Of a stretch of DNA of 61,474 bases, positions 56,191 to 59,336 are shown one piece after another (position 1 is the stretch's first letter; every line of letters begins with the position of its first letter). Below the pieces are notes generated by a model, which was given only the letters and a program-made list of their open reading frames with translations, was not told the DNA's origin and searched no databases. The translations under genes and the position numbers were made by a program. This DNA is from Clostridia bacterium. Its GTDB lineage: Bacteria > Bacillota > Peptococcia > DRI-13 > SV3-B141. The stretch covers positions 1-61,474 of the forward strand of contig JAHDSB010000028.1 in the NCBI GenBank assembly GCA_018433015.1. The letters run 5' to 3'.

Positions 56191-56235
56191 CTTTTCTGTT
56201 TTTATTTTGTCATATTTGAAAGGAGATATAAGCCT

Positions 56236-58047
56236 TTGGATATTAGGGGCAATGTAGCAAATATAAAAAAGAGCGTTCTGATAAAAATAGAGGCCTTGGA
56301 AGATATAATTGTGCCTCGGCATTTATTAGTTAGCCCCGTACTGGCCCATGAACTTGCCTACTTAACTAATCTGATTAATGATAAAGAGATCGCTGTTTAT
56401 ATAGACCGTCAAGGAACTATTAGGAATATAATGATTGGTGATAAAAACTCAGCCTCTTTAGCTGAGAACCGTTTGTACAGAAATAAAAATAGACTATCGG
56501 GTTTGAGATGTGTCCATACCCATCCCAGCGGTGATAGTACCTTAAGTACCTTGGATTTAACAAGTCTTAGTCAATTGCGCTTAGATTGTATGGTAGCTGT
56601 AGGGGCTAAAGGCGGAAGAGTAACAAGTATTAGTGCCGCTTTTCTACAACCAAATAAGCAATTAATTCCTGAAGATAAGGGTTCCTATCAATTTTTTGGA
56701 CCTTTTAACTGTGAACAAGTTGTTGATTTTCCTTTTGATGAAATATTAGCTGATATTGAAAAGGACATAACAAAATCAGCTGATTATTTTAAGGATTCTC
56801 AGCATAATGAGTTTAAAGCATTACTCTTGGGTTTCAGTAGGCAAAAAGGTGCTTTATTAACTAGTGAAGAATCTTTAGAAGAATTAGAGGAACTTTCCAA
56901 GACTGCTGGTTTAGAAGTAAAAGAGAAATTAATTTTAAATATAAAAAAACCTGATACAGCTTTTTTTATTGGTACCGGAAAAGTAAAAGAGCTATCCTTA
57001 TACAGGCAGCAGCACAATATAGGGATAATTATTTTTGATGAAGAGCTTTCTCCTCGGCAGCAAAGTAATTTAGAAGATATTCTGGGTTGTAGTGTCATAG
57101 ATCGTACAGCTCTAATATTACAGATATTTGCCGATAGGGCTCGTACCAAAGAAGGGAAACTGCAAGTGGAACTAGCCCAATTGAATTATTTACTTCCTCG
57201 GCTAATTGGTCGTGGCCATGACTTATCCCGTTTAGGGGGAGGAATAGGTACACGGGGACCGGGAGAAACGAAGTTAGAGACGGATAGAAGGAAAATCTAT
57301 AAAAGAATTAGTACTTTAAAAAAAGAAATTACTGAAATTAGAAAGCAAAGAAACGTTTTAAGAAATCAACGAGAAAAAAATAGTGTTCCTGTGGTAGCCC
57401 TAGTGGGTTATACTAATGCAGGGAAATCATCATTATTGAACACGTTAACAGCAGCCGAAGTATTCTCTGAGGATAAACTTTTTGCTACTCTAGACCCTAC
57501 TACTCGACGCCTTGAAATGGAGGGAGGAGAACTTCTTATAACAGATACGGTAGGCTTTATTCAAAAATTACCTACCCAACTTGTTGCTGCCTTCCAGGCT
57601 ACCTTAGAGGAAATACAATATGCAGATATATTGCTGCATGTTATTGATAGTAGCAATAGTGCTTGGCCAACCCATATCACTGCAGTTAACATGATTCTAG
57701 AAGAACTTAAAATTATAGATAAACCCACAATACATGTTTTTAATAAATGGGATCTAGTAACTAACCCAGAAGATATGGAGCTTTATATCAATAAATATAA
57801 ACCTTCTATACCTGTTTCCGCACGGTATGGAACAAATATAGAATCTCTATTAGGATTAATATCTGAGTATTTACCGGAAAAACTTGAGCAAGTAAGGCTT
57901 TTATTACCATATTCAGAAGCATCACTGTTAAATACACTTTATAATAATTGCTCGGTAGAAGAAACGGATTACCAAGAGGAAGGGATTTATTGTACAGTTC
58001 GTCTTAATAATTATTGGTTACAAATGATGAAAAAGTATATGTGTTAG
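56236..58047 (+). CDS. hflX: GTPase HflX with N-terminal JAMM-like domain
   Basis: 603 residues, about 180 more than typical HflX. Residues about 235-580 are standard: FIGTGKVKEL, LSRLGGGIGTRGPGETKLE near 331-349, G1 GYTNAGKSSLL near 391, DTVGF and FNKWD. HflX splits stalled or hibernating ribosomes. Residues 1-150 include VHTHPSGDSTLSTLD with H94, H96, S104 and D107 in exact JAMM spacing (HxH-x7-S-x2-D) and a possible Glu at 51, as in RadC/JAB metalloproteins. TTG start after AAAGGAGAT, behind an attenuator-like leader. ynbB follows, as in Bacillus. Confidence 0.93.
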   Translation: MDIRGNVANIKKSVLIKIEALEDIIVPRHLLVSPVLAHELAYLTNLINDKEIAVYIDRQGTIRNIMIGDKNSASLAENRLYRNKNRLSGLRCVHTHPSGDSTLSTLDLTSLSQLRLDCMVAVGAKGGRVTSISAAFLQPNKQLIPEDKGSYQFFGPFNCEQVVDFPFDEILADIEKDITKSADYFKDSQHNEFKALLLGFSRQKGALLTSEESLEELEELSKTAGLEVKEKLILNIKKPDTAFFIGTGKVKELSLYRQQHNIGIIIFDEELSPRQQSNLEDILGCSVIDRTALILQIFADRARTKEGKLQVELAQLNYLLPRLIGRGHDLSRLGGGIGTRGPGETKLETDRRKIYKRISTLKKEITEIRKQRNVLRNQREKNSVPVVALVGYTNAGKSSLLNTLTAAEVFSEDKLFATLDPTTRRLEMEGGELLITDTVGFIQKLPTQLVAAFQATLEEIQYADILLHVIDSSNSAWPTHITAVNMILEELKIIDKPTIHVFNKWDLVTNPEDMELYINKYKPSIPVSARYGTNIESLLGLISEYLPEKLEQVRLLLPYSEASLLNTLYNNCSVEETDYQEEGIYCTVRLNNYWLQMMKKYMC

Positions 58048-58058
58048 AAGGGATGAAA

Positions 58059-59336
58059 ATGTCGTTATTATATGAGCAACTAAAAAATATATATAATGTT
58101 GACGATGATATTTTACTTAAACTAAGAGAAGCTATTTCCGCATGTGAAGAACATTTTAAAAATATACAACATAGCGTGGAGCTCAATCAGCTAAAGGTGT
58201 TAAGAGCTTTTCAGATTAACAATGTTAGTGATTATCATTTGAATGGTTCTACGGGTTATGGGTATGGTGATAGTGGTCGCGATACTTTAGAAGAGGTTTA
58301 TGCTTCAACTTTTGGTGGAGAAAAGGCTTTAGTTCGTGCTCAAATTGTATCGGGAACTCATGCCATTGCAGTAGGTTTATTAGGCAACCTGGATCATGGA
58401 GATGAGATGATCTGTGTCACAGGAACCCCTTACGATACTTTGCTTAAAGTAATTGGTATGCATAATGAATATGGGTCCCTCAAATATAATGGGGTAATCT
58501 ATAAAGAATTACCTTTGACTAGGGAACAAAAAATTGATATAGCTGGGCTAAAACAACTAATATCACCTCGCACAAAACTCGTTTATTTCCAACGTTCTAA
58601 AGGGTATCAATGGAGACCTTCTATCATGATCTCCGAACTTAAAGAAGCAATACAATACGTAAAACAACAATATCCTCATATTATCTGTATGGTTGATAAT
58701 TGTTACGGAGAATTTGTGGAAACACAAACTCCTTGTGAAATTGGGGCAGATTTAACTGCCGGATCATTAATCAAGAATCCCGGTGGTGGTCTTGCTTTGT
58801 CGGGTGGTTATTTAGTAGGCAGAGTAGATCTTATTGAGCGTGCAGCAGTCCGTTTATCTTCTCCTGGTATAGGTTTAGATGTTGGAGCGAGCTTTAACTT
58901 TAACCGCTCTGCCTATCAGGGCCTTTTCATGTCTCCTTTAGTAGTAGGAGAAGCCTTAAAAGGTGCTGTTTTAGCAGCTAAATTCTTTCAATTATTAGGA
59001 TATCCGGTATTACCCCAGTATAATGAAAAAAGAACAGATATTATTCAGGCTGTGCAAGTTGGTAGTAGAGAAAAGATGGTAGCATTCTGTCATGGTATTC
59101 AAAAAGCTTGCCCCCTTGATTCAGTATTTTTGCCTGAACCAGCCTTGTTACCGGGTTATGATAACGAAGTGATTATGGCGGGCGGAACTTTCATACAAGG
59201 TTCGTCCATCGAACTTAGCGCCGATGGACCCATTAGACCGCCTTTTAATATTTATTTGCAAGGAGGATTATCTTTTTCTCACATTAAAATAGGTTTAGCC
59301 TTAGCTGCAGCCGAAATAAAAAAACTGGAAAGGTGA
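58059..59336 (+). CDS. ynbB: YnbB / aluminium-resistance family PLP enzyme (methionine gamma-lyase-like)
   Basis: 425 residues from the ATG at 58059, six bases after GAAGGG. PLP-fold signatures: GSTGYGYGDSGRDTLEEVYA, VRAQIVSGTHAIAVGL, CMVDNCYGEFVE and the lysine in TAGSLIKNPGGGLALSGGYL. The family (Met_gamma_lyase, PF06838-like) is annotated as aluminium resistance; its chemistry is thought to be C-S lyase-like. It directly follows hflX, the same order as in B. subtilis. Confidence 0.92.
   Translation: MSLLYEQLKNIYNVDDDILLKLREAISACEEHFKNIQHSVELNQLKVLRAFQINNVSDYHLNGSTGYGYGDSGRDTLEEVYASTFGGEKALVRAQIVSGTHAIAVGLLGNLDHGDEMICVTGTPYDTLLKVIGMHNEYGSLKYNGVIYKELPLTREQKIDIAGLKQLISPRTKLVYFQRSKGYQWRPSIMISELKEAIQYVKQQYPHIICMVDNCYGEFVETQTPCEIGADLTAGSLIKNPGGGLALSGGYLVGRVDLIERAAVRLSSPGIGLDVGASFNFNRSAYQGLFMSPLVVGEALKGAVLAAKFFQLLGYPVLPQYNEKRTDIIQAVQVGSREKMVAFCHGIQKACPLDSVFLPEPALLPGYDNEVIMAGGTFIQGSSIELSADGPIRPPFNIYLQGGLSFSHIKIGLALAAAEIKKLER

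What the first reader, a model, noticed from the sequence alone, without database searches (positions are those of the whole stretch)
56236..56700. HflX carries an N-terminal JAMM (RadC/JAB-like) domain
The motif VHTHPSGDSTLSTLD gives H94, H96, S104 and D107 in exact JAMM spacing, and E51 lies 43 residues upstream, where the JAMM glutamate is expected. A metal-dependent hydrolase domain on a ribosome-splitting GTPase might cleave a nascent-chain tag or a modified factor on stalled ribosomes. The usual HflX part remains intact.
Basis: partly seen in the sequence, partly recalled or inferred. Interest (0 to 1): 0.66.

Follow-up and report, generated by a model that had tools for sequence, protein, structure and literature searches.

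The report
HflX ribosome-splitter with JAMM metalloprotease domain
In many Firmicutes the GTPase that splits stalled ribosomes (HflX) carries an extra front domain that looks like an active zinc protease of the deubiquitinase (JAMM) type, a combination that no held paper or domain database describes and that suggests an unknown cutting reaction at the ribosome.

Summary
Confirmed and extended. The 603-aa ORF at window 56236-58047 is a complete HflX (TIGR03156, 465 bits, cut-off 216.75) with an extra ~190-residue N-terminal domain. E51, H94, H96, S104 and D107 fit the JAMM motif EXnH(S/T)HX7SXXD exactly. An AlphaFold2 model (pLDDT 84.7) matches CSN5, Rpn11, archaeal JAMMs and RadC; a family profile finds AMSH deubiquitinases in PDB at E = 8e-4 and aligns with RadC at 95.9% probability. 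Across 69 diverse homologues the only invariant columns are E51, G60, G68, H94, T95, H96, P97, S104 and D107. Of 300 sampled genomes of the phylum, 232 have HflX; 57 carry the domain, always fused to HflX. Pfam gives it no family above cut-off.

New beyond the finding: three lineages (12 sampled genomes) keep the domain under purifying selection but have lost the metal site, like eukaryotic MPN- domains. So the domain also has a catalysis-independent role.

The genome has RadC and an RqcH-like protein but no ThiS-type ubiquitin-like protein and only a TcdA-like E1. Best reading: a flexibly tethered metal-dependent amide/peptide hydrolase delivered by HflX to the large subunit; substrate unknown.

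The parts
56220..56225 (+). Shine-Dalgarno-like AAGGAG, 10 nt before the TTG start
   Evidence: sequence
56236..58047 (+). hflX gene, 603 aa, N-terminal JAMM domain + complete HflX
56236..56775 (+). N-terminal JAMM (MPN+) domain, residues 1-180
   Evidence: AF2 model pLDDT 84.7, pTM 0.82; fold matches CSN5/Rpn11/AfJAMM/PfJAMM1/RadC; profile hits
56386..56388 (+). E51, predicted general acid/base glutamate, at start of strand 51-57
56515..56523 (+). H94-T95-H96, predicted zinc ligands at end of strand 90-96
56545..56547 (+). S104, predicted oxyanion-stabilising serine
   Evidence: role from PMC300881
56554..56556 (+). D107, predicted third zinc ligand, start of helix 105-113
56776..56814 (+). 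Flexible linker, residues 181-193 (pLDDT <50 at 185-190)
56866..57132 (+). HflX N-terminal domain (PF13167, residues 211-299)
57136..57372 (+). HflX middle/helical domain (PF16360, residues 301-379) with SRLGGGIGTRGPGETKLETDRR, the loop region that other HflX insert towards the peptidyl transferase centre
   Evidence: HD-loop role from PMC12493154
57394..57747 (+). GTPase domain (PF01926, residues 387-504), G1/G3/G4 motifs GYTNAGKS, DTVGF, NKWD intact
57799..58005 (+). HflX C-terminal domain (PF19275, just below cut-off, residues 522-590)
58014..59336 (+). Downstream neighbour ynbB-like (PF06838 Met_gamma_lyase), a common hflX neighbour, indicating that this is the resident hflX locus

Best explanation
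The protein is the cell's normal HflX with a JAMM-family (MPN+) metallohydrolase domain tethered to its N terminus by a flexible linker. Shown here: domain identity, an intact five-residue metal/catalytic signature under strong constraint, and an intact HflX. Inferred: the domain binds zinc and hydrolyses an amide or isopeptide bond; HflX-GTP brings it to stalled or idle 70S and free 50S, where its attachment point (near uL16, H38 and H69-H71, by analogy with the mycobacterial N-terminal extension) places it at the subunit interface, so the likely substrate is a polypeptide or peptide adduct exposed there while the ribosome is split, rather than a nascent-chain tag at the tunnel exit. The domain also has a binding role that does not need catalysis, because some lineages keep it under selection after losing the metal site.
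For: Exact JAMM motif and spacing. Invariant E51, H94, H96, S104, D107 in 16 motif-unselected homologues and in 69 diverse domains, where they are five of only nine invariant columns. AF2 model places E51 on a strand, HxH at a strand end and D107 at a helix start, as in AfJAMM. Foldseek best hits nearly all JAMM proteins, probability up to 0.98. Profile to AMSH-type JAMM structures E 8e-4 and to RadC, hhalign 95.9%, E 6e-9; single members reach Prok-JAB at 5e-5. Domain only ever found fused to HflX. dN/dS mostly 0.10-0.20 in the domain. HflX motifs intact. Flexible attachment: full-length pTM 0.62, linker pLDDT <50. Position on 50S from the mycobacterial extension (PMC12493154).
Against: No biochemical evidence of metal binding or hydrolysis. 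The window sequence alone is below cut-off for every Pfam JAB family. Foldseek TM-scores are modest (about 0.2-0.4 by query, up to 0.51 by target), with large rmsd for many hits, so the identification rests on motif + topology + profile together. HflX without the domain is common, even in the same order, and 12 sampled genomes kept the domain without its metal site, so catalysis is dispensable to HflX as such. Placement near uL16/H69-H71 is by analogy with an unrelated 39-residue extension.
Confidence: 0.65

Rival explanations
1. Non-catalytic ribosome-contact domain: the JAMM fold works as a docking or rRNA-remodelling element, like the mycobacterial HflX N-terminal extension or the MPN- subunits of eukaryotic complexes; the metal site is structural or a relic.
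For: Three lineages (f86; f47+f93; f85) keep the domain without both zinc histidines with dN/dS 0.11-0.21. Mycobacterial HflX uses an N-terminal extension to disorder H68-H71 (PMC12493154).
Against: In every other lineage all five catalytic residues, including E51 and S104, which are not metal ligands, are invariant across very divergent sequences; E51/S104 constraint is expected for catalysis, not for a structural metal. Residue loss is concerted: all 12 degenerate proteins lack H94, and none of the sampled proteins has lost only one of the five.
Confidence: 0.18
2. Isopeptidase of a ubiquitin-like conjugation system: it removes a beta-grasp modifier from a translation factor or ribosomal protein.
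For: Closest solved sequence relatives are AMSH deubiquitinases; bacterial JAB domains are encoded beside Ub-like proteins and E1-like enzymes (PMC1779556).
Against: The 99%-complete genome has no ThiS/MoaD-family protein, no other Prok-JAB protein and only one E1-like protein, a 234-aa TcdA-like tRNA-modification enzyme by appearance.
Confidence: 0.1
3. RadC-type domain acting on nucleic acid (rRNA, mRNA or tRNA) rather than on a peptide bond.
For: Profile similarity to RadC is strong and RadC was named as a repair protein; HflX works on rRNA surfaces.
Against: HTHP...LSxxD and the PDB sequence hits are AMSH-like; no JAMM protein has a proven nuclease activity that I know of; RadC's own biochemistry is unsettled.
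Confidence: 0.06
4. Chance motif in a lineage-specific extension of no defined fold.
For: No Pfam family above cut-off for the window sequence.
Against: Invariance of the motif in unselected homologues, predicted fold, profile hits.
Confidence: 0.01

Closest known systems
HflX GTPase (TIGR03156; E. coli, Listeria, mycobacterial HflX)
   Same: Complete GTP-bdg_N, GTP-bdg_M and GTPase regions, PTC-loop region, and often the ynbB neighbour
   Different: Additional ~190-residue N-terminal JAMM domain, absent from E. coli-type and most HflX
Mycobacterial HflX N-terminal extension (PMC12493154)
   Same: An N-terminal addition to HflX that changes what it does on the 50S
   Different: 39-58 residues, no JAMM fold or metal site. 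That review notes extensions in some Clostridium and Paenibacillus HflX without naming a domain
AMSH / AMSH-LP / Sst2 JAMM deubiquitinases
   Same: Best sequence hits in PDB; iHTHP...lSxvDl core, same motif spacing
   Different: Eukaryotic, K63-ubiquitin specific (general knowledge); similarity only over about 55 residues; no GTPase
RadC (PF04002)
   Same: JAMM core, HxHPSGD..S..D, hhalign 95.9%
   Different: HTHP instead of HNHP, no RadC N-terminal region; true RadC is a separate gene in the same genome at maf-radC-mreB
AfJAMM, PfJAMM1, Caldiarchaeum Rpn11 homologue
   Same: JAMM fold and motif, Foldseek hits
   Different: Stand-alone small proteins; those with known partners act with ubiquitin-like modifiers
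MPN- domains (e.g. eIF3f/h, Rpn8; from general knowledge)
   Same: Parallel to the lineages here that keep the domain without the metal site
   Different: Eukaryotic complexes; no relation to HflX

Membership tests
JAMM/MPN+ superfamily | EXnH(S/T)HX7SXXD motif | tested here: met
   definition from PMC300881
JAMM/MPN+ superfamily | JAB1/MPN fold with catalytic residues in the right elements | tested here: met
   AF2 model, Foldseek to CSN5, Rpn11, AfJAMM, PfJAMM1, RadC; by prediction only
JAMM/MPN+ superfamily | Statistically significant profile similarity to JAMM families | tested here: met
   AMSH-like E 8e-4, RadC hhalign E 6e-9, Prok-JAB best member 5e-5; the window sequence alone is below cut-off
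JAMM/MPN+ superfamily | Zinc binding and amide/isopeptide hydrolysis | not testable with these tools
   needs biochemistry
HflX | Over the curated HflX cut-off with GTP-bdg_N, GTP-bdg_M and GTPase domains | tested here: met
   TIGR03156 465.3 vs 216.75; PF13167, PF16360, PF01926 over cut-off
HflX | HflX C-terminal domain PF19275 | tested here: inconclusive
   24.5 bits vs cut-off 26.4
HflX | Splits 70S ribosomes | not testable with these tools
   inferred from orthology
RadC (PF04002) | Curated score cut-off | tested here: not met
   14.4 vs 22.1 bits
RadC (PF04002) | RadC N-terminal region and locus | tested here: not met
   N-terminal region absent; own RadC found elsewhere
Prok-JAB (PF14464) | Curated score cut-off | tested here: not met
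   12.3 vs 25 bits; several relatives reach E 1e-4 to 5e-5
Ub-like conjugation system | Beta-grasp modifier and E1 partner in the genome | tested here: not met
   no ThiS family; the only ThiF match looks TcdA-like

The most novel reading that the evidence does not exclude
A large part of the Firmicutes couples ribosome splitting to a ribosome-targeted JAMM protease, a bacterial counterpart of having a deubiquitinase-type enzyme on the translation machinery, acting on an unknown peptide or isopeptide adduct; some lineages turned it into a pseudoenzyme.
Probability: 0.45. Interest if true: 0.82.

Novelty: new variant of a known kind. Interest (0 to 1): 0.64.

Why it matters
HflX is nearly universal and much studied as a ribosome-splitting, antibiotic-tolerance factor. 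A conserved protease-type active site on it in many Clostridia and Negativicutes, including cultured genera (Acetivibrio, Heliobacterium, Anaerovibrio, Anaerobacterium), implies a chemical step in bacterial ribosome rescue or recycling that has not been described. It is directly testable with point mutants, and the natural metal-site-dead lineages provide built-in controls.

Tried and rejected
Single-sequence scan of genome contigs with the window domain found nothing; the alignment query succeeded. A weak S19 match in PDB and a TPK match in Pfam were judged chance. A weak bVLRF1 match (E 0.14) in one metal-site-dead domain was followed to the release-factor literature, where 'JAMM' turned out to be the word 'jammed'. 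No held paper links HflX to JAMM or RadC; the survey of prokaryotic JAB domains does not mention HflX. Apparent long HflX ORFs without the domain (L161-L164, L166-L170) are open-frame read-through in GC-rich genomes or other additions, except L165, which a degenerate-domain profile recovers at E 2e-20. One-clade origin of domain-bearing HflX was tested and rejected on the core tree (AU p = 1e-11).

Full report
Observation. Residues E51, H94, H96, S104 and D107 fit the published JAMM definition EXnH(S/T)HX7SXXD with the same spacing as AfJAMM (PMC300881). The rest is a complete HflX: TIGR03156 465 bits, GTP-bdg_N, GTP-bdg_M and GTPase domains all above cut-off, with the G motifs and the SRLGGGIGTRGPGETKLETDRR loop. 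The N-terminal 190 residues reach no Pfam or NCBIfam cut-off; the best weak hits are RadC (E 0.037) and Prok-JAB (E 0.16).

Is it a JAMM domain? A search of 60 related genomes with the full protein, which did not select for the motif, returned 16 long HflX proteins (including the window's own) at 42-60% identity. In their aligned N-domains twelve columns are invariant, including all five JAMM residues. A scan of GTDB genomes gave 467 confirmed loci; the 80 kept are all HflX fusions, nearly all Bacillota (Clostridia, Negativicutes, Heliobacterium, Acetivibrio, Christensenella-type) and one bin labelled Deltaproteobacteria. In 69 diverse domains only nine columns are invariant: E51, G60, G68, H94, T95, H96, P97, S104, D107. 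AlphaFold2 gives pLDDT 84.7 and pTM 0.82, with E51 at a strand start, HxH at a strand end and D107 at a helix start, as in AfJAMM. Foldseek against PDB returns CSN5, Rpn11, archaeal Rpn11, AfJAMM, PfJAMM1 and RadC (modest TM-scores). The broader profile finds AMSH-type proteases at E 8e-4, and profile-profile comparison with RadC gives 95.9%. The profile also picks up RadC-like 235-aa proteins in genome scans at E 5e-6 to 1e-3; the two that were read are RadC.

Distribution. In 300 genomes drawn from the phylum, 232 have HflX. 56 have the domain at E <= 5e-10, and a 57th was found with a degenerate-domain profile; always inside an HflX ORF, never alone. Among domain-bearing proteins sampled without regard to the motif, those that are intact have all five residues and 12 have lost the site (the intact class was defined by the motif, so the informative point is that there are no intermediates). 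Six genomes of one genus-level group (f86) have H94F and H96R with E51 kept; families f47, f93 and f85 have lost most or all of the site. dN/dS in the domain is mostly 0.10-0.20, in intact and in metal-site-dead lineages alike (one intact pair 0.48). So the dead domains are still maintained.

History. A tree of 123 HflX cores needs 13 changes of domain state; well-supported branches force at least 4. Holding all domain-bearing cores together is rejected (AU p 1e-11). Domain-lacking families lie next to domain-bearing ones in the window's own order, and near the f47/f93 metal-site-dead clade two domain-less families branch with a dead one, which looks like intact -> dead -> lost. Because the fusion point and domain are homologous, one old fusion with repeated loss is the simplest reading; gene transfer is not excluded. 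The downstream ynbB gene is kept beside 36 of 52 intact loci (window neighbour PF06838), so this is the resident hflX locus, not a mobile copy.

Mechanism. Shown: domain identity, constraint on catalytic residues, intact HflX, and a flexible linker (full-length model pLDDT 85.9 but pTM 0.62; residues 185-190 below 50). Inferred: zinc-dependent amide or isopeptide hydrolysis on the ribosome. In mycobacteria the HflX N-terminal extension starts near uL16 and H38 and reaches H69-H71 at the subunit interface (PMC12493154). By analogy the JAMM domain would lie there, not at the tunnel exit, which disfavours a nascent-chain tag outside the ribosome as substrate. The genome has RadC at maf-radC-mreB and an RqcH-like NFACT protein, but no other Prok-JAB protein, no ThiS-family modifier and one TcdA-like E1. 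A ubiquitin-like conjugate is therefore not the favoured substrate here, although a divergent modifier could be missed.

Novelty. No held paper links HflX to JAMM or RadC; the survey of prokaryotic JAB domains does not mention HflX; the mycobacterial review only notes that some clostridial HflX have N-terminal extensions. Most subscription papers were not searchable. I rate it a new variant of a known kind: known domain, known GTPase, undescribed and widely conserved combination, with a pseudoenzyme branch.

Noticed in passing
L112-L115, L117, L118 (genomes G290, G181, G204, G227, G330, G310): HflX with a retained N-domain in which H94 and H96 of the JAMM site are F and R; E51 kept; domain under purifying selection.
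   Followed up: yes
L116, L121-L124, L165: HflX with a retained N-domain but metal site fully or mostly lost; domain-less families branch with L116 in the tree.
   Followed up: yes
G036:C183:28464-30242 and G036:C242:14208-15410: One genome carries both a long JAMM-HflX and a second, short HflX without the domain.
   Followed up: no
L029, L125, L126 (family f15): JAMM-HflX of only 535-537 residues, about 65 shorter than the others although the JAMM domain is full length, so the C-terminal part may be reduced.
   Followed up: no
L111 (JAGUVT010000109.1): JAMM-HflX in a metagenome bin labelled Deltaproteobacteria: transfer, or a wrongly binned or labelled contig.
   Followed up: no
genomes G006, G007, G016 and others without PF13167 match: Several nearly complete genomes of the window's own order have no HflX at all.
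   Followed up: no
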